Below are positions 4,420-19,803 of a stretch of DNA of 25,387 nucleotides, piece by piece. The position numbers and the translations under genes are program-made. The notes below the pieces were generated by a model. The model saw nothing but the letters and a program-made list of their open reading frames with translations. It had not been told where the DNA came from and ran no database searches. This DNA is from a virus, in IMG/VR virus record IMGVR_UViG_3300037961_002604, positions 1 through 25,387 of that record. The stretch is one strand, 5' to 3'. Positions within the stretch are counted from its first letter, which is position 1. Each line of letters opens with the position of its first letter.

Positions 4420-6702
4420 TTAGACAGTTGTGAGGGAGGTACACTCATCATCAGTGAGGGCTCTGTCAAAGATGATAATTGAGTTTATGTAGATGGGCTG
4501 ACCGTCAGCCTTCATTTGCAAATTCGAAAAATCACCATAGTCTGTATTAAACCTCTGGTGCTGTTGGGCTCCAGCATAAAATATAGTAAACTCCCCTGTG
4601 CTCTCTACCCTTCTCACAATTACTTTGACTCGTCCTGCGGTGGTAATTTGATGCGAGACTGGCACGGTATCATTGTCTCTGTCGGCAAAATAAACAGCTG
4701 TTCGTTTGTTATCACCTGGTCTGTAAAATCTAAATGCACTGAAGTTGTGGTTTCTCTGCCCAAATCGAATCCCCGTGGATGCAGAATCTCTGTTTAACAA
4801 GGGGTTTTTAGCCAGATCAACAAACATTGTGATATCCTTACCATCCATATAATCGCTCAAGTCAAGCGCATGGGTTTCATCTTGGTTTCTTGTTACACCA
4901 GATGAAGTGCCGTGGTTGGGGATGTAAGAAGTGCAGTAACGACCTTTTTCAATCTGAAGACCGTAAAACAAAAGACCTTTTGTTGTGTCTCCGTCATAAG
5001 TCGTAGTGGTTCCAGAAGCATCTTCAATAAAAAAGAAGTTTATGTTTCTCGTTGCATCGTCTGCCAACCCCTCTTTTCCGTTGATCTCGACTCTGTACCA
5101 CCCGTCTCCGTAATTGATGATTTCTTCTGATCCTGTATGTCCTGCTTTGTTATCAACGGCTGAAGGTGTTCCTGACAGATCTACCGTCACATTCATCTTC
5201 AAAACCGTATCCTCGCTGAACTGACAGAAAAACTTCTCTCTACCTTTGGCCTTTACAAAAAAGGAAAGAGAATAAAATTCATCGTCTTCAATGTCGAAGT
5301 CAATAAACTGAAATCCGTGAGTATTGTTGGTGTCTGAAGTCTCTTGAATAAACACAGCGTTTTCAACCCCTTCTGGTGATTTTGCATTGTTTTTCTCAAA
5401 CGTCGCACGGATGGGGTTAAATGAGCCTGTAAGATGTTCACTGTGCTGAAACAGGTTCTTCCTAGTCGGCTCCATCAACAAGTGAGGGCAAGTGACATTA
5501 TTGTAGTCGAAACGCGGTTCGTCTTCAAGAATACCACCCTTGCCTGTAAGACCACCAACTGACTCCATGACTGGAGTAGCAACAAGTCCATCTTCGAGCT
5601 GAGCATTTTGAATAAAGATGCTTCCATTAGAAACGACGCCTGTGCTGTAGATTGGGTTTGCATTAGCATCATGAGAAGCCAGGATGATTTTAACTTCATC
5701 AATAGGCTCATTAAAAGTAATCTGAGGTCTGTACCAACCGCCACCCACGGACTCAATCTTGTTAAAGATCTTAGGGGCGTTTTGGGCTCCAGCGGAGCCA
5801 GTCATAAAGCTACCATCGTTCAAGTTCACGTAGAACTCGATCTGAGCTGGGGCACCATCGGTAGGGTCCACCCTAATTACAACGCCATCAGTTGACCCTT
5901 TCTTTACGTAAAAAGAATAAGTCTTGACGCCACCAGTAGATGTAAAAGACTGGGTTAGGAGACCGCTTGTTGAATTTGACTGCATCTTCCACGCATTAGG
6001 GCTTCCGTCATACCCCGTTTGACCGCCAGTCATGGTGACATTAGACTTAGTCCAATCAGAGCTGCTAAACGTGTTGGAGTTAAGAAGAAGATTTTCTCTA
6101 CCCTTCTCGATCTTCCCGTCAGGACCAATTCGAGTGGCAGTGAGGTTACTGCCTCTAACAAAAGTAAAATCCTTAGGTGCTTGCTCGACTTCTTTGACAG
6201 ATACGTTGTCGATCTTGCAGCTTACAGTTTCTGTATTGCCTCCAACTACCTTAAAAACAAGCTCTGTATCCGCCAAGCCTGAACCATGATCGTAGCCTGC
6301 AGCAGTAAAGGTACCGCTGTACTGACCATTGCGATCGATTGTGATGAATCCTGGATTGTCATCTTCAAGAACAAAAACCTTTGCCGCAGTTCCGCTTCTA
6401 GAAAAATCGCTTACTTCGAAAGAAACCCTATAGGTTTTGCCGATCTCAAACAAAGCTGCGGCAGATTTAGCCCTGTGGTATTCATTAGCTACAGCATCTG
6501 TAATTACGAGCTTTCCACCAGTAATCGTGATGTGCGTTTCATCTGGCGTAATGTTCCAACTGTCACTGGTATCAAAACCTCCATTTGTTAAAAGCTCAGT
6601 AGCCTTGACCTTCTCTTCGGGTTTGATGTTGTACAGCACATCATCCTTGCCTGCGCCTCCTTCAGCGATAAGGGCTACTGCTGCGTCGTCATATAAGCTC
6701 AT
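4420..6702 (-). CDS. Tail-fibre/adhesin with carbohydrate-binding-like domains, copy 2 (760 aa)
   Basis: This is a large beta-rich virion protein, likely for host-surface binding. The order is: an N-terminal conserved segment (MSLYDDAAVAL, then YNIKPEEK) that may anchor it; a CBM-like jelly roll (about 35-172); the linker DFTFVRGSNLTATR, typical of phage LamG/CBM fibres; a second jelly roll (about 205-375) opening with RENLLLNSNTF; a third (about 410-595) opening with LLMEPTRKNLFQHSE; and a C-terminal LamG/ConA-like domain ending IIIFDRALTDDECTSLTT. It is a paralogue of the adjacent 750-residue protein, with conserved ends and diverged middles. Receptor specificity is inferred, not visible. 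Confidence 0.85.
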   Translation of the reverse strand: MSLYDDAAVALIAEGGAGKDDVLYNIKPEEKVKATELLTNGGFDTSDSWNITPDETHITITGGKLVITDAVANEYHRAKSAAALFEIGKTYRVSFEVSDFSRSGTAAKVFVLEDDNPGFITIDRNGQYSGTFTAAGYDHGSGLADTELVFKVVGGNTETVSCKIDNVSVKEVEQAPKDFTFVRGSNLTATRIGPDGKIEKGRENLLLNSNTFSSSDWTKSNVTMTGGQTGYDGSPNAWKMQSNSTSGLLTQSFTSTGGVKTYSFYVKKGSTDGVVIRVDPTDGAPAQIEFYVNLNDGSFMTGSAGAQNAPKIFNKIESVGGGWYRPQITFNEPIDEVKIILASHDANANPIYSTGVVSNGSIFIQNAQLEDGLVATPVMESVGGLTGKGGILEDEPRFDYNNVTCPHLLMEPTRKNLFQHSEHLTGSFNPIRATFEKNNAKSPEGVENAVFIQETSDTNNTHGFQFIDFDIEDDEFYSLSFFVKAKGREKFFCQFSEDTVLKMNVTVDLSGTPSAVDNKAGHTGSEEIINYGDGWYRVEINGKEGLADDATRNINFFFIEDASGTTTTYDGDTTKGLLFYGLQIEKGRYCTSYIPNHGTSSGVTRNQDETHALDLSDYMDGKDITMFVDLAKNPLLNRDSASTGIRFGQRNHNFSAFRFYRPGDNKRTAVYFADRDNDTVPVSHQITTAGRVKVIVRRVESTGEFTIFYAGAQQHQRFNTDYGDFSNLQMKADGQPIYINSIIIFDRALTDDECTSLTTV

Positions 6703-6716
6703 TCGTTGTTGTTTTC

Positions 6717-8969
6717 TTAGGTTGTCAAAGATACGACATCAGCATCTTCCAGGGCTTCAGGGAAATACATGATGCTTTTGATTCGGTCAGGGTTGCCGTC
6801 GCTGTTGCCTACTGAAAGGATCTTGGCATCTGCTCTTTCTGTGAGAGACATTGTTTCTCGAAGCGCCCCGTCGATGAACAGCTTCGCTTCCAAAGCGATG
6901 TTGTCAACCACGAAAGCGTACTTGGTGTCGTCACCAGCTTCGAATGATCCGAATGTTGCTTTTGATAGTGGTCGGTTTGATTCGTTGTCGTCAAAGAAAA
7001 ACTGTTTCTTGCCGTCGTTGTTGACAAAACACCCCATCAAAGTTGAGTTCCCATCACCTTTAAATCGAGGGGCTCTGTTGTCAGAAACCACCCTGTCGCT
7101 GTGAGAGTGAGCGAAGAACGTGTATTTGTCAAGGTTCGTCTTCGACGGGGTGTACTGAGGGATGGTGTCTCCCTTCCTTGTTGCTGCACTCCCGTAAGTA
7201 GGGATGTACGAAGTAACGCAGCTGCCTTTTTCTAGTTGCCAGCCCCACGTCTCTATAGATGTAGTGGCTGAACCGTTTACTCTGTCAATGTCTAGTTCAA
7301 AATTACCTGCAGTAGAGTTGGCTGTAAATGTAAAGCCTATACGCCACCAGTTATTGCCGTAACTCTCCACAAAAGCTTTAGTTCGAGTTCCACTTGCTCC
7401 AGTAGAGGTTAGTGCCAAAGATGCTCCAGTCCACTGAAAACCCTGACGAAACAGTTCATTAGACCCTGCATCTGTTCTGCACGCAAGGGTGGTAACACCA
7501 GTACAATCAATGTTTTTTACAAATGCTGATATCGAATAATTTACTGAATTTGTAAGGGTGACATTATCGGTTGTTATTGGTAGAATCCTCTCGTTGTGGC
7601 CGTTACTTCCATTCTTAGCAACCTTCAGAGATGACTTAGTGCCATCTGGAGCTGTACCATGATTTACAGTTAGAGTAACGCTATTGGTAGCCTCTACAAC
7701 GCCCTCACTATTTGGAACCTCATTTTTTCTCTCGGGCTCGTACAGAAGTGCTGGTGGGAGAGCGTTGTCAAGAGAGTAGTCGTACCTAGGCTCGTCTTCT
7801 TGGATGCCATCTGTGCTCTTAGAGTTAGAGTCTGTTCTGTCGATGTATGGGGTGGCGACCAGCCCTGGTTCAAGCTGAGAGTTTTGGATGAAGATGTAAG
7901 AGTTAGTTGCTGGGATCTCGTCTCCATCTGCTTCTGCAACTTGAATCCTAACCTCTGTAATCGAGGCTTCGCCCTTACTTGTTAGTGAGATCCTAAACCA
8001 GTTACTTCCAATCGATTCAATTTTTGACTCAACAACTGTGTTCGATGGACTGGCTCCAACGGCGCCGTTTCCACTGAGGTCGAAATAATTGTTTACGTTA
8101 GTTCCACTCGTCAGAGCGTTCAATCGAATCCAGTTTACATTACCTGCTTTTGCGTAAACGCTAAACGTAGAAACCCCAGATACAGAAAGGCTTGTTTGAT
8201 TTAGACGAGCCAAATGAGTTGATCCATTCCCAGTTGCTTTTAGTTCCCACGCATTGCTGCTTCCGTCGTAACCACCCTTACCACCAGTTAATGAAGCGCT
8301 ATTCAAAGTCCACGTAGTGTCAAACTGGTTGCTCTGCAACAACAAGTTTTGTCTCGTCTTCTTGATCAACCCGTCAGCTCCTTCATGCGTAGCTGTCAAG
8401 TCGCTTGCTCGCACAAAGCTGAAGTCGTTGGCTTTCTGCTCTACTTCTCTGACAGAGACGTTGTCGAGCTTGAAGCTTGTTTCGTTGCCTGATCCACCAG
8501 GTCCGCTGTTCTTAAACACCAGCTTTGAAGGGGTTCCGATTTGAACTCCATTGCTTTCATGACCCTTAGCCTCGTAAATGAACACGTACTTACCCGAAGT
8601 CTTGATCGATCCGATGTGCGGTTGTTGGTTGCTAGACTCCTGAATAATAAGCTGAGGGTTGTTGTTTCCTACGGATGTAAAGTCTGTAACTGTAAACGAA
8701 ACCTTGTAGGTCTTTCCTTTTTCAAAAACAGGTGTAGATGTTCTCAAGTAGTTATAACCATCCAACCCTGAAAAAACAGCCTTCCCGTCTGAAAACGTAA
8801 TGTCAGAACCAGTCTTCTCCCATCCGTCACCAGCATTTATAAAGTCTCCGTTTGTAACATACTCATCAACCTTCAACTTCTCTTCTGGCTTGATGTTGTA
8901 AGCTACCTCGTCGTTGCCAGCACCAGCTGCACCTGAGAAAATAAGTGATGCCTTGTCGTATAAGCTCAT
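6717..8969 (-). CDS. Tail-fibre/adhesin with carbohydrate-binding-like domains, copy 1 (750 aa)
   Basis: This is the tandem paralogue of the 760-residue fibre. It shares the N-terminal block (MSLYDKASLIF, then YNIKPEEKLK), the FSFVRASDLTATHEG linker, RQNLLLQSNQF at the start of domain two, EDEPRYDY and LLYEPERKNEVPNSE at the start of domain three, and a LamG-like C-terminal region ending in SLTT. Domain three and the C-terminal domain differ strongly from copy 2. The start lies 4 nt from the endolysin stop. A fibre or adhesin role rests on the domain style. An alternative is a minor head-decoration or head-fibre protein. Confidence 0.85.
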   Translation of the reverse strand: MSLYDKASLIFSGAAGAGNDEVAYNIKPEEKLKVDEYVTNGDFINAGDGWEKTGSDITFSDGKAVFSGLDGYNYLRTSTPVFEKGKTYKVSFTVTDFTSVGNNNPQLIIQESSNQQPHIGSIKTSGKYVFIYEAKGHESNGVQIGTPSKLVFKNSGPGGSGNETSFKLDNVSVREVEQKANDFSFVRASDLTATHEGADGLIKKTRQNLLLQSNQFDTTWTLNSASLTGGKGGYDGSSNAWELKATGNGSTHLARLNQTSLSVSGVSTFSVYAKAGNVNWIRLNALTSGTNVNNYFDLSGNGAVGASPSNTVVESKIESIGSNWFRISLTSKGEASITEVRIQVAEADGDEIPATNSYIFIQNSQLEPGLVATPYIDRTDSNSKSTDGIQEDEPRYDYSLDNALPPALLYEPERKNEVPNSEGVVEATNSVTLTVNHGTAPDGTKSSLKVAKNGSNGHNERILPITTDNVTLTNSVNYSISAFVKNIDCTGVTTLACRTDAGSNELFRQGFQWTGASLALTSTGASGTRTKAFVESYGNNWWRIGFTFTANSTAGNFELDIDRVNGSATTSIETWGWQLEKGSCVTSYIPTYGSAATRKGDTIPQYTPSKTNLDKYTFFAHSHSDRVVSDNRAPRFKGDGNSTLMGCFVNNDGKKQFFFDDNESNRPLSKATFGSFEAGDDTKYAFVVDNIALEAKLFIDGALRETMSLTERADAKILSVGNSDGNPDRIKSIMYFPEALEDADVVSLTT

Positions 8970-11734: not shown

Positions 11735-11767
11735 TTTGGAAGTTAAGGATTCCTGTCTTTACCTTTG
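11735..11767 (+). promoter_or_regulatory. Early promoter, Bacteroidetes sigma-ABfr type
   Basis: TTTG at 11735-11738 and TACCTTTG at 11760-11767, separated by 21 nt, match the Bacteroidetes consensus TTTG-N19..21-TAnnTTTG at every defined position. Transcription should begin around 11773, giving a leader of about 35 nt before the ATG at 11808. This promoter would drive the early gene chain with the host polymerase. Confidence 0.75.
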
Positions 11768-12452: not shown

Positions 12453-12455
12453 GGG

Positions 12456-12504
12456 GTGAGTATATACACCTTCTGAGTTTACGAAGAAGGTGATATACGA
12501 ACAC
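12456..12504 (+). repeat. Conserved long hairpin element, copy A
   Basis: A stem of 14 bp with a single bulged A. GTATAT (12460-12465) pairs with ATATAC (12493-12498), and CACCTTCT (12467-12474) pairs with AGAAGGTG (12485-12492), around the 10-nt loop GAGTTTACGA. A second copy at 14392-14444 has the same loop and inner stem, but an outer stem two pairs longer. Both follow a gene end and precede a TTCAAACTTCAA-type leader. No U-tract follows, so RNA processing, attenuation or protein binding is more likely than simple termination. Confidence 0.75.
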
Positions 12505-12536
12505 CTCCACCAATCGAAACTTCAAACTTCAACACC

Positions 12537-12770
12537 ATGCAAAACACATTCCCAACCATCGGAGCCGCAGTGCTCTACCTCAACGGATTCCACCACGGCA
12601 AGTACCTTGGCCGCCTGAACTACCTAGCAGCTATGACTCCATCATGGGTCATGTCTCTTGCAGAGAGTATGTGGGAGTCACGCAACGAGGACATTGCCAA
12701 GGACTACCCTGACCTGCTTGCCTTCAGCATCAATGAGACGTATGTCAAGCAATACAACGAGGTACACTGA
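12537..12770 (+). CDS. Small early protein (77 aa)
   Basis: This is a 77-residue soluble protein (AAVLYLNGFHHGKYLGRLNYLAAM, ending in YVKQYNEVH). No family is recognised. It stands alone between two hairpins, preceded by a duplicated leader motif (GAAACTTCAAACTTCAACACC) directly before the ATG. It is likely a host-modifying early protein by position only. Confidence 0.7.
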   Translation: MQNTFPTIGAAVLYLNGFHHGKYLGRLNYLAAMTPSWVMSLAESMWESRNEDIAKDYPDLLAFSINETYVKQYNEVH

Positions 12771-12789
12771 CGAGTCCTGAATGGACGAA

Positions 12790-12805
12790 ACACCCTTCGG
12801 GGTGT
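12790..12805 (+). terminator. UUCG-tetraloop hairpin between early genes
   Basis: ACACCC-TTCG-GGGTGT is a 6-bp stem closed by C-G over the very stable UUCG tetraloop, 20 nt after the preceding stop codon. Terminators often use this loop, but only CTGTATC follows, not a U-tract. It may stabilise or cap an mRNA 3' end. Confidence 0.4.
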
Positions 12806-12832
12806 CTGTATCAAACTTCAAATTCATTTACA

Positions 12833-12985
12833 ATGAACTCATCAAAATTTCAAGCCGTGCTCGATATGTTCGAAGCAGGCTTCCCAACTCACCTCCTGAC
12901 CTCATGCCAAGCGTGGGATGACCTGACCTGTGACGAGCAGATGTACATCGACGCTCACACCATCGAAATCTTCGTAGAGCAATGA
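12833..12985 (+). CDS. Small early protein (50 aa)
   Basis: This 50-residue acidic protein (MNSSKFQAVLDMFEAGFP, ending in TIEIFVEQ) has predicted helices and no recognised family. A leader TCAAACTTCAAATTCATTTACA precedes the ATG. The stop overlaps the next start as ATGA, indicating coupled translation. Support comes from the leader and the coupling, since length alone would not justify it. Confidence 0.6.
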   Translation: MNSSKFQAVLDMFEAGFPTHLLTSCQAWDDLTCDEQMYIDAHTIEIFVEQ

Positions 12986-13218
12986 ACATTTGGGAACGTT
13001 ATCCATCCAAGGGCACTCACTACGAGTGGATGAGAGCCAAGGCAAAGATGCACACCTTCGAGTACACCTGTTACAGGGGACGTGACCGCGACGATTGGGC
13101 CAAGGGCACCATCCAAGCACTCACGACCGAGGATGCGGTCATGATGCTTGAGCGTCGGATGCTCAACGAGGGCTTCACCCTCAAGCGTAGCAGTGTCAAA
13201 GTAGTTGCAAATCAGTAA
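12982..13218 (+). CDS. Small early protein (78 aa)
   Basis: This 78-residue mixed-charge protein (MNIWERYPSKGTHYEWMRAK, then TEDAVMMLERRMLNEGFTLKRSSVKVV) looks like an alpha/beta fold with a C-terminal strand. No family is recognised. It starts in an ATGA overlap with the preceding 50-residue gene and is followed by a 15-nt gap. Confidence 0.7.
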   Translation: MNIWERYPSKGTHYEWMRAKAKMHTFEYTCYRGRDRDDWAKGTIQALTTEDAVMMLERRMLNEGFTLKRSSVKVVANQ

Positions 13219-13233
13219 GTTAAATCACATCAC

Positions 13234-13317
13234 ATGAAGCGAAACTTCAACATCTTATTCATCGCCTTCCTCGCATGGATGGCGGCTTTACTCACCATCG
13301 TAGCCCTGAACTCATGA
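13234..13317 (+). CDS. Micro membrane peptide (27 aa)
   Basis: This 27-residue ORF reads as one membrane helix: a positive N-terminus MKRN, then about 20 hydrophobic residues (ILFIAFLAWMAALLTIVAL). The ATG follows the leader-like TAAATCACATCAC, and the stop overlaps the next start as ATGA. This would be an N-in, C-out single-span peptide, such as a superinfection-exclusion or host-envelope peptide. That function is a guess. Confidence 0.5.
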   Translation: MKRNFNILFIAFLAWMAALLTIVALNS

Positions 13318-13529
13318 CTATCGAATACAACACCGACCGCGACATCCTCGTCGAGGTATCAAACATCTTCAACGCCAAGGACAACTTGGCCAGTGCCTAC
13401 CGCAGGCTTGACACCTACCTCCGCCACGAGTGTGGCTTTGACTACCACGAAGTGGACGACGTCATCGACCGCCTCGAAGAACAGGTCACAGAACACATCA
13501 TTGAAATCATCGAATCCAAGAACGCATGA
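13314..13529 (+). CDS. Small early acidic helical protein (71 aa)
   Basis: A 71-residue acidic protein with helices such as AKDNLASAYRRLDTYLRHE and DDVIDRLEEQVTEHIIEIIES. No family is recognised. The ATG at 13314 overlaps the micro-membrane ORF stop (ATGA) and is chosen over an upstream in-frame ATG that lies inside that ORF. The gene ends in another ATGA overlap. Confidence 0.7.
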   Translation: MTIEYNTDRDILVEVSNIFNAKDNLASAYRRLDTYLRHECGFDYHEVDDVIDRLEEQVTEHIIEIIESKNA

Positions 13530-13705
13530 AAGACCCACTTTACAACTACGAAACCTGCCACAAGTGTGGCGGACAAGGCATCTTCCTCGGCTCTGACTTC
13601 GACGGCGAATCTTGGCACTACGACTACGAGTGTGAGGACTGCGAAGCCAACTGGAACGTGGAGTTCGAACTCAAGCCTGTTGAACGATACAACGACGTAG
13701 GATGA
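13526..13705 (+). CDS. Zinc-ribbon early protein (59 aa)
   Basis: Two CxxC knuckles, CHKC at residues 11-14 and CEDC at 36-39, are separated by a 21-residue loop (GGQGIFLGSDF…). This is a classic zinc ribbon in a 59-residue protein. Such ribbons bind nucleic acid or protein partners, and small phage ribbons sometimes modify host transcription or translation. Here the target is unknown. The gene is coupled at both ends by ATGA overlaps. Confidence 0.7.
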   Translation: MKDPLYNYETCHKCGGQGIFLGSDFDGESWHYDYECEDCEANWNVEFELKPVERYNDVG

Positions 13706-13854
13706 CACACCGAGTAATCAGCACATCCGACCAATCTCTTGCCGAGTACGTCACTTGGTACGTCGGCACGAAGAGGCAGTGCGAGAGCGTGCTCCCACGA
13801 ATCAGGCAGTGGGCTAACAAGACATCAGACAAATTCATAATCATCAAGGAATGA
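13702..13854 (+). CDS. Small basic early protein (50 aa)
   Basis: A 50-residue basic protein (SLAEYVTWYVGTKRQCESVL, then RQWANKTSDKFIIIKE) with no recognised family. It is coupled to both neighbours by ATGA overlaps, which is the main reason to accept so short a gene. Confidence 0.6.
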   Translation: MTHRVISTSDQSLAEYVTWYVGTKRQCESVLPRIRQWANKTSDKFIIIKE

Positions 13855-14093
13855 ACGACCGAATCCAAGGACTCTGCAACAAAGTTGCCGACATCAAGTA
13901 CGACCTCCAAATTGTACTGGACGAACTCTACTCCATTCAACACGAACTGGAGGAGCAGGAGGAGCAACCCTGCGACTATGCCGCGAACTTCATCCGCACC
14001 ATGAGCCTGTGGCTCGACCGACGGCCTGAAATTGCCAACGACGGCAAGACCATCGAGCAACTCATCAACGAATACAAAATCGCATCAGAATGA
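13851..14093 (+). CDS. Small early coiled-coil protein (80 aa)
   Basis: An 80-residue acidic protein. Residues about 3-38 (RIQGLCNKVADIKYDLQIVL, then LYSIQHELEEQEEQ) form a likely coiled coil. The rest is helical (ANFIRTMSLWLDRRPEI, TIEQLINEYKIASE). No family is recognised. ATGA overlaps occur at both ends. Confidence 0.7.
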   Translation: MNDRIQGLCNKVADIKYDLQIVLDELYSIQHELEEQEEQPCDYAANFIRTMSLWLDRRPEIANDGKTIEQLINEYKIASE

Positions 14094-14284
14094 ACATGTA
14101 CGACAAAGCAATCAAAGCCCTCGAACATGCGGGGTTCAGCCCCGAAAAGGTGGGTACATCAGACGACATCTGCATCTACGTCAACGTGTGGAATGACGCC
14201 ATGTCAGAAGCGCACGAGATGCGTCTGCACGACACCGAGATTGGTTGGTGGGCGGGCATCCACGATACAGAATTGGTTAGTTGA
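14090..14284 (+). CDS. Small early acidic protein (64 aa)
   Basis: A 64-residue acidic protein (YDKAIKALEHAGFSPEKVG, then EIGWWAGIHDTELVS). No family is recognised. It is the last gene of this coupled chain. A strong GC hairpin begins 12 nt after its stop, so the transcript may end or be cut there. Confidence 0.65.
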   Translation: MNMYDKAIKALEHAGFSPEKVGTSDDICIYVNVWNDAMSEAHEMRLHDTEIGWWAGIHDTELVS

Positions 14285-14295
14285 AGTTTGACCAA

Positions 14296-14327
14296 GGGGG
14301 TGCCGTGTGAAACGTCACACCACCCCC
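14296..14327 (+). terminator. Strong GC hairpin after an early gene chain
   Basis: GGGGGTG (14296-14302) pairs with CACCCCC (14321-14327), and GTGTG (14305-14309) pairs with CACAC (14316-14320), around loop AAACGT with a two-base CC bulge. This gives 12 GC-rich pairs right after a stop codon. There is no following U-tract, so it may act as a terminator without one or as a 3' end stabiliser. Confidence 0.45.
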
Positions 14328-14336
14328 ACCCCTTCC

Positions 14337-14385
14337 AAGGGAGCGCAGTCGGTGCGTTCGAGGTGTTCGAGTCCCCTCCTCCCTT
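14337..14385 (+). ncRNA. 49-nt tRNA-like element lacking an anticodon arm
   Basis: The ends AAGGGAG and CTCCCTT are fully complementary over seven pairs, like an acceptor stem. Inside are a D-arm look-alike GCGC-AGTCGGT-GCGT, with the typical A..GG loop, and a T-arm look-alike GAGGTG-TTCGAGT-CCCCTC, with a consensus T loop and one stem mismatch. The first G of the D-like stem is shared with the acceptor, and about 24 nt corresponding to the anticodon and variable arms are absent. It could be a deletion remnant of a tRNA gene or a functional tRNA mimic. The geometry is not canonical. Confidence 0.35.
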
Positions 14386-14391
14386 CTATGT

Positions 14392-14444
14392 GTGAGTGTA
14401 TATACACCTTCTGAGTTTACGAAGAAGGTGATATACACGAACAC
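14392..14444 (+). repeat. Conserved long hairpin element, copy B
   Basis: Same loop and inner stem as copy A at 12456-12504, but the outer stem is extended. GTGTATAT (14396-14403) pairs with ATATACAC (14431-14438), giving 16 bp with one bulged A (14404). The extra GT on one arm is matched by an extra AC on the other. It precedes the 200-residue early gene and its TTCAAACTTCAATTCA leader. Confidence 0.75.
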
Positions 14445-14476
14445 TTCAAAACATTCAAACTTCAATTCAATACACC

Positions 14477-19475: not shown

Positions 19476-19497
19476 AGTGGGAGGGCTGTACGCAGCC

Positions 19498-19803
19498 ATG
19501 GAGTGGGGGCTGAGGAACATCGCGTTCCTCGGTCCCTATTCTTTCTGCGGGAGCAAAGACAATGTAAACCTCACATTCCACTGCAACATGCAAGACTACG
19601 ACGAAGACTTCGACGTTTACATTCCAGAGTTTACAGAGAAGTACATCATGCTCATCATCCCCAACAAGGATGGTGACAACAGCGTGCTCTTGACCAAAGA
19701 TGATTGCGCTGACGTCATGGGTAGCAAGGTGTCTCTCAAGTGGATCTCCAACAAACTCAGACGTAAATGGGAAATGAAGATCTCCCGAACATCTACTACA
19801 TGA
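19498..19803 (+). CDS. Hypothetical protein (101 aa)
   Basis: A 101-residue protein with aromatic and acidic stretches (NVNLTFHCNMQDYDEDFDVY, EKYIMLIIPNKDGDNSVLLT) and a basic C-terminal helix (KWISNKLRRKWEMKIS). No family is recognised. The ATG at 19498 is taken. An in-frame GTG at 19477, just after the SSB-like stop, would add seven residues and is a real alternative. It overlaps the next gene by 37 nt. Confidence 0.65.
   Translation: MEWGLRNIAFLGPYSFCGSKDNVNLTFHCNMQDYDEDFDVYIPEFTEKYIMLIIPNKDGDNSVLLTKDDCADVMGSKVSLKWISNKLRRKWEMKISRTSTT

What the first reader, a model, noticed from the sequence alone, without database searches (positions are those of the whole stretch)
12456..14444. Two copies of a long hairpin with compensatory stem change in the early arm
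Copies at 12456-12504 and 14392-14444 share the 10-nt loop GAGTTTACGA, an 8-bp inner stem and a single bulged A. Copy B has GT inserted on the 5' arm and AC on the 3' arm, which extends the outer stem from 6 to 8 pairs without breaking it. Paired insertions that preserve pairing imply selection for structure. Both lie after a gene end and before a TTCAAACTTCAA leader. No U-tract follows, so this may be a phage RNA-processing, attenuation or anti-termination element rather than a terminator.
Basis: partly seen in the sequence, partly recalled or inferred. Interest (0 to 1): 0.72.

Follow-up and report, generated by a model that had tools for sequence, protein, structure and literature searches.

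The report
Phage mRNA-punctuating hairpins beside hammerhead ribozymes
A phage that probably infects a marine flavobacterium separates its early genes with long RNA hairpins that occupy the same kind of slot as self-cutting hammerhead ribozymes, which suggests that the hairpins are cut sites dividing one long message into gene-sized mRNAs.

Summary
Both hairpins (12453-12507 and 14390-14444) fold far better than shuffles. They recur in 14 other IMG/VR phage contigs with clear covariation: 8 base pairs are kept through changes on both sides. The '10-nt loop' is really a tandem G.A motif plus a closing pair; in the second copy the same G.A motif recurs lower in the stem, with further outer pairs. 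The key context was missed: an unannotated hammerhead ribozyme (12761-12812) lies between the copies, also just after a gene end and before the same leader. Across related contigs, 142 of 178 such leader slots carry a hammerhead (54) or one of four hairpin families (88). Homologous genes have a ribozyme in some phages and a hairpin in others. Sequence identity between swapped slots begins at the leader, and the element usually goes with the upstream gene. None of 120 distinct element slots has a Bacteroidota promoter; one lies only before the first early gene. Best explanation: the hairpins are transcript-cleavage sites, probably for host RNase III as in T7 early RNA, equivalent to the ribozymes. 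Cleavage itself is inferred, not shown. Hammerhead punctuation of phage transcripts was proposed in 2011 (PMC3088659); the interchangeable ribozyme/hairpin cassette is the new part.

The parts
12453..12507 (+). Hairpin copy A (class HP1): outer stem, bulged A at 12466, inner stem 12467-12474/12485-12492, apical GA-G-UUUA-C-GA at 12475-12484
14390..14444 (+). Hairpin copy B (HP1): GTGT-GA-GTGTATAT / ATATACAC-GA-ACAC outer stem, bulged A at 14404, inner stem 14405-14412/14423-14430, same apex at 14413-14422
12761..12812 (+). Hammerhead ribozyme, stem I open (GGUACA/UGUAUC), core CUGACGA..GAAA, stem II GUCC/GGAC, stem III CACCC-UUCG-GGGUG; predicted cleavage after C12806, 26 nt before ATG 12833
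12521..12536 (+). G-poor leader TTCAAACTTCAACACC before ATG 12537
12810..12832 (+). G-poor leader ATCAAACTTCAAATTCATTTACA before ATG 12833
14454..14476 (+). G-poor leader TTCAAACTTCAATTCAATACACC before ATG 14477
11735..11767 (+). Bacteroidota-type promoter TTTG-N21-TACCTTTG before the first early gene (ATG 11808); no HP1-HP4 or hammerhead in that slot in this clade
   Evidence: consensus TTTG/TANNTTTG from PMC6847099
14337..14385 (+). Truncated tRNA-like stretch (acceptor-, D-arm- and T-arm-like sequences, no anticodon arm) just upstream of copy B

Best explanation
The two hairpins are transcript-processing sites in the early operon. A long early RNA starts at a host-type promoter (11735-11767) and reads through the whole arm. 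At intergenic slots it is cut either by a hammerhead ribozyme (12761-12812) or at a long hairpin of roughly 20-28 bp, the latter most likely by the host's RNase III. Each cut would leave the upstream mRNA with a structured 3' part and the downstream mRNA with a short, unstructured, nearly G-free leader (TTCAAACTTCAA) suited to initiation without a Shine-Dalgarno sequence. Leader, gene and terminal element form a cassette that recombines at the leader. Shown by sequence: RNA-level structural conservation, shared slots with hammerheads, lack of the host-type promoter in those slots, swapping. Inferred: that cleavage occurs, the enzyme, and the effect on mRNA.
For: Structure selected as + strand RNA: 9 distinct HP1 copies, 8 pairs changed on both sides (shuffled mean 3.3, 1/500), covariation 0.202 vs 0.094. 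In 28 HP1+HP2 hairpins, 9 of 12 consensus pairs show double changes, and G-U pairs occur that would be A.C on the other strand. The G.A motifs would be C.U mismatches on the - strand. Same slots as hammerheads: 178 leader slots = 54 hammerhead + 124 others, of which 88 carry hairpin classes HP1-HP4 (142 in all); hammerhead stem II comes in seven different complementary sequences. Homologous genes with different elements: window gene 12833 family, HHR 9/HP1 2/HP2 11/HP3 7 at E 1e-5, and HHR 8/HP1 2 at 50% identity; MTIESLYF family HHR 23/HP1 3/HP3 1; 98%-identical proteins with HP2 vs HP3; 91%-identical proteins with HHR vs HP1. Similar geometry: hammerhead cut site to ATG 19-29 nt (54/54), hairpin base to ATG mostly 21-40 nt, helices of about 20-28 bp in HP1-HP4. 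No TTG/TAnnTTTG promoter in 120 distinct HP/HHR slots, against 10 of 32 other slots. Host-type evidence: primase relatives mostly in Flavobacterium and Cellulophaga phages. [quoted passage not shown]
Against: No transcript ends or cleavage data. The RNase III step rests on helix length, sequence turnover between classes and the T7 analogy. The phages encode no RNase III found with PF14622 (13 records), so a host enzyme is required and the host is unidentified. Within HP1/HP2 the apex CUGA..GAA is invariant, more conservation than a generic dsRNA substrate needs. Hammerhead and hairpin exchange is rarer than hairpin-to-hairpin exchange. Hairpin energy alone does not discriminate: many other stretches of the window fold to -22 kcal/mol or better. 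Slot pairs are not independent because contigs are related.
Confidence: 0.62

Rival explanations
1. The hairpins are 3'-end protectors or 3'-UTR elements of the upstream gene: they block exonucleases after cleavage elsewhere or mark mRNA 3' ends, without being cut themselves.
For: Element class follows the upstream gene (88/94 pairs same class with the upstream gene shared and the downstream gene different, vs 114/207 for the reverse). A cut hammerhead also leaves structure at the upstream 3' end.
Against: Without a cut or terminator the hairpin would sit inside a continuous mRNA; no host-type promoter lies downstream and no U-tract follows. Association with the upstream gene also follows simply from recombination at the leader.
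Confidence: 0.17
2. The hairpin binds a phage or host protein (translational repressor, RNase other than RNase III, or anti-terminator) through the invariant CUGA..GAA apex.
For: Apex UGA..GAA invariant in 28 HP1/HP2 hairpins; bulged A conserved within HP1.
Against: HP3 and HP4 at the same kind of slot lack this apex; interchange with hammerheads, which act by cleavage, does not fit repression.
Confidence: 0.11
3. The hairpin is an unrecognised self-cleaving ribozyme.
For: Same slots as hammerheads; known self-cleaving classes are enriched near one another in bacteria and Mu-like phages (PMC10085705); invariant nucleotides in the apex.
Against: A simple rod with few conserved unpaired nucleotides; HP3 and HP4 share no core with HP1; no Rfam match.
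Confidence: 0.06
4. DNA-level recombination or replication hairpins.
For: Sequence identity between phages begins at the leader next to the element.
Against: G.A motifs and G-U pairs favour the + strand RNA; elements co-oriented with early genes.
Confidence: 0.04

Closest known systems
T7 early-region RNase III processing sites (R1.1 and others)
   Same: Hairpins between early genes of one long host-transcribed RNA; processing yields mono- and dicistronic mRNAs (PMC4858673)
   Different: Cleavage not shown here; probable host is Bacteroidota; slots shared with hammerhead ribozymes; several unrelated hairpin families fill the slots
Clustered hammerhead ribozymes in prophages (Perreault et al. 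2011, PMC3088659)
   Same: Several hammerheads flank single phage genes; authors proposed that long phage transcripts are processed to single-gene mRNAs; HF1/HF2 example 13 nt upstream of an early gene with a mapped 5' end nearby
   Different: Passages read mention no hairpin replacing the ribozyme; here both alternate in one operon with a shared leader
PeSLs of T4-like phages (Arbiol 2010; Comeau 2014, seen only through PMC4503421)
   Same: Stem-loop-bearing intergenic cassettes associated with gene shuffling between related phages
   Different: PeSLs carry an early promoter; here no host-type promoter was found, only a leader, and some elements are ribozymes
Theta ribozymes of gut phages (PMC10879173)
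   Same: Small self-cleaving ribozymes next to phage tRNAs
   Different: HDV-like fold and tRNA 3' maturation, not mRNA punctuation; only the tRNA-like stretches next to copy B recall it

Membership tests
T7-type RNase III processing site | Intergenic position in a co-transcribed early region without internal promoters | tested here: met
   0 of 120 distinct HP/HHR slots with TTG/TAnnTTTG; promoter before the first early gene. Only this promoter type was tested across slots
T7-type RNase III processing site | Double helix of about 20 bp or more interrupted by a bulge or internal loop | tested here: met
   HP1 20-24, HP2 22-28, HP3 22-28, HP4 22-25 pairs, most with bulge or internal loop
T7-type RNase III processing site | Cleavage by RNase III in vitro and in vivo | not testable with these tools
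   No RNA data; phages lack PF14622; PF14622 is found in the Bacteroides control genome
Hammerhead ribozyme (hairpins 12453-12507, 14390-14444) | Core CUGANGA..GAAA and NUH cleavage site | tested here: not met
   Hairpins read CUGAG..CGAAG, lacking the core; no Rfam hit
Hammerhead ribozyme (12761-12812) | Core, three stems, NUH cleavage site | tested here: met
   Type I Rfam hit, 23.3 bits, E 0.015, below the gathering score of 34; core complete, stems I-III fold; stem I and stem II pair across relatives
Intrinsic terminator | Stem followed by U-tract, and a promoter for downstream genes | tested here: not met
   No U-tract, no terminator-like site at the hairpins; no host-type promoter downstream
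PeSL | Early promoter combined with stem-loop | tested here: not met
   No TTG/TAnnTTTG promoter in HP/HHR slots
PeSL | Modular gene shuffling at the element | tested here: met
   Identity starts at or within a few nt of the leader in four compared slot pairs; class tracks the upstream gene
Any Rfam 15 family (hairpins) | Match at gathering score | tested here: not met

The most novel reading that the evidence does not exclude
The tandem-G.A hairpin is a new self-cleaving ribozyme class that phages interchange with hammerheads as mRNA punctuation.
Probability: 0.06. Interest if true: 0.9.

Novelty: new variant of a known kind. Interest (0 to 1): 0.62.

Why it matters
Hammerheads in phages have long lacked an assigned role. 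Here sequence comparison alone places them in the same slots, at similar distances from the start codon and in front of homologous genes, as a second kind of element. This makes the transcript-punctuation idea directly testable: swap one for the other and read the mRNA ends. It would also give a rule for reading such phage early regions (element, G-poor leader, ATG) and a candidate parallel, in phages of Bacteroidota, to T7 RNase III processing and T4 PeSL cassettes.

Tried and rejected
Intrinsic terminator or attenuator: no U-tract, no terminator-like site. Known RNA family: no Rfam match for any hairpin class. Hairpin as a hammerhead variant: tandem G.A resembles the stem II junction, but the CUGANGA core is absent. 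Host-genome element: no exact match to CCTTCTGARTTTAYGAAGAAGG in 84,980 prokaryote genomes (does not exclude divergent forms). Phage-encoded RNase III: not found with PF14622. Cultured relative: Maribacter phage Panino, first 40 kb, has no hammerhead by the same pattern. Energy cut-off as evidence: rejected, because many other stretches of this window fold equally well; the report relies on motif classes, shuffles and covariation. The first MAFFT alignment (A1) places the GT/AC insertion without gaps, so copy B's G.A motif lies two columns outside that of copy A; the pair counts use it as it stands.

Full report
CHECK OF THE OBSERVATION. The two copies, the shared loop, the bulged A and the paired GT/AC insertion are all present. 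Both fold far better than shuffles (-26.7 and -28.2 kcal/mol, z -5.3 and -6.7), and the 39-nt core is an exact repeat. The stems are longer than stated. Copy B continues outward through a tandem G.A (UGAG/CGAA) into four more pairs. The 'loop' GAGUUUACGA is better read as a second tandem G.A closing a G-C pair and a UUUA tetraloop, because a relative has GAAUUUAUGA, which keeps that pair as A-U.

CONSERVATION. The exact 26-nt core occurs in 14 IMG/VR contigs. Looser patterns added copies within the same contigs. In 9 distinct sequences, 92% of cells pair, 8 pairs are changed on both sides (shuffled mean 3.3; 1 of 500 shuffles as high) and the covariation score is 0.202 against 0.094; slid controls are far lower. 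A covariance model found divergent hairpins in related contigs. They group into HP1 (the window type), HP2 (apex GA-AC-NNN-GU-GA), HP3 (UUCA-UUUA-UGAA apex) and HP4 (GAGUCUAYGACU apex). HP1 and HP2 share an invariant CUGA..GAA apex over 28 sequences, with double changes at 9 of 12 consensus pairs. G-U pairs and the G.A motifs point to the + strand RNA, and the model scores about 80-88 bits on that strand against about 25-36 on the other for window-type copies.

THE MISSED NEIGHBOUR. A permissive Rfam search gave a hammerhead at 12762-12811 (23.3 bits, E 0.015, below the gathering score). Its core is complete and its stems fold. Relatives carry hammerheads at comparable places, with seven different complementary stem II sequences. 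A hammerhead pattern scan of IMG/VR returned 114 stretches in diverse phages, often many per contig and close to start codons.

SHARED SLOTS. Of 178 slots defined by the leader motif plus an ORF, 54 have a hammerhead and 88 a hairpin of class HP1-HP4 (142 together). The remaining 36 include the first early gene of the window's clade, where a TTTG/TAnnTTTG promoter is found instead. Over the 108 distinct non-hammerhead upstreams the best 75-nt energy averages -28.9 against -17.8 for shuffles. Energy alone is not diagnostic, since many unrelated stretches of this window fold to -22 kcal/mol or better. Homologous genes carry different elements: the family of window gene 12833 has HHR 9, HP1 2, HP2 11 and HP3 7 at E 1e-5. 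At 50% identity that family splits into one group with HHR 8 and HP1 2 and another with HP2 11 and HP3 7. The family of window gene 12537 has HP1 7, HP2 11 and HHR 2; that of 14477 has HP1 8, HP3 2 and HP2 1. Near-identical proteins differ in element: L047:9661 HP2 against L130:13583 HP3 at 98%, and L029:18856 HHR against L034:15793 HP1 at 91%. In the second pair the change looks like loss of a gene together with its hammerhead, so this is cassette exchange rather than point replacement.

GEOMETRY AND CASSETTES. Hammerhead cut sites lie 19-29 nt before the ATG (54 of 54 with stem I). Hairpin bases lie mostly 21-40 nt before it: HP1 22-40, HP2 21-38, HP3 28-59, HP4 38-56. The leader is almost G-free from -4 to -21, with A at -3 in 58% and at -12 in 87%; adenines at -3, -6, -12 and -13 favour initiation in Flavobacterium johnsoniae (PMC6847099). 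In four compared slot pairs sequence identity starts at or within a few nucleotides of the leader. Element class follows the upstream gene (88 of 94) more than the downstream gene (114 of 207), background about 24%. These pairs are not independent.

HOST. The primase-helicase has a BT4734-like N-terminal domain, and its matches are mostly Flavobacterium and Cellulophaga phages. With the promoter type this points to a Bacteroidota, probably flavobacterial, host. No isolate in the phage collection matches the region itself.

MECHANISM. Shown by sequence: conserved RNA structure, slots shared with hammerheads, no host-type promoter in the slots, cassette exchange. Inferred: the hairpins are cut, most likely by host RNase III as in T7 (PMC4858673), giving mRNAs with a short open leader. 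The phages lack their own RNase III by PF14622. Main rivals are a 3'-end protecting element without cleavage and a specific protein-binding hairpin; a new ribozyme is possible but unlikely because HP3 and HP4 share no core with HP1.

NOVELTY. Perreault et al. 2011 (PMC3088659) already proposed that clustered hammerheads process long phage transcripts into operon- or gene-length mRNAs, and T7 shows hairpin processing of early RNA. What the literature searched here did not show is one operon in which ribozymes and hairpins alternate and replace one another in cassettes with a common leader. The paper library holds open-licence papers only, so prior description elsewhere is not excluded.

Noticed in passing
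L072, L062, L077, L108, L063, L110: Arrays of hammerhead-like sequences (12 matches in L072) shortly upstream of start codons, some with Shine-Dalgarno-like sequence, in phages without the TTCAAACTTCAA leader; hammerhead punctuation looks much wider than this group.
   Followed up: partly
window 14337-14385; L017 18268-18350; L027 4520-4610: tRNA-like stretches with T-arm and acceptor-like pairing but a missing, odd or heavily altered anticodon region, directly upstream of hairpin copy B; the window copy lacks the anticodon arm.
   Followed up: partly
L020 15900-16023 (- strand): A hairpin directly followed by a hammerhead ahead of a region with a tRNA-like sequence (tRNA hit at 38.8 bits, L003 7528-7596).
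   Followed up: no
window 19500-19535: A strong stem (GGGGCUGAGGAAC..GUUCCUCGGUCCC; -41 kcal/mol for the 64-nt stretch at 19489) near a gene boundary, possibly coding; not of the HP classes.
   Followed up: no
window 4420-6702 and 6717-8969 (- strand): Two tandem paralogous proteins of 760 and 750 aa with no Pfam match for the first, sharing a 71%-identical 91-nt region near their starts; probably structural.
   Followed up: no
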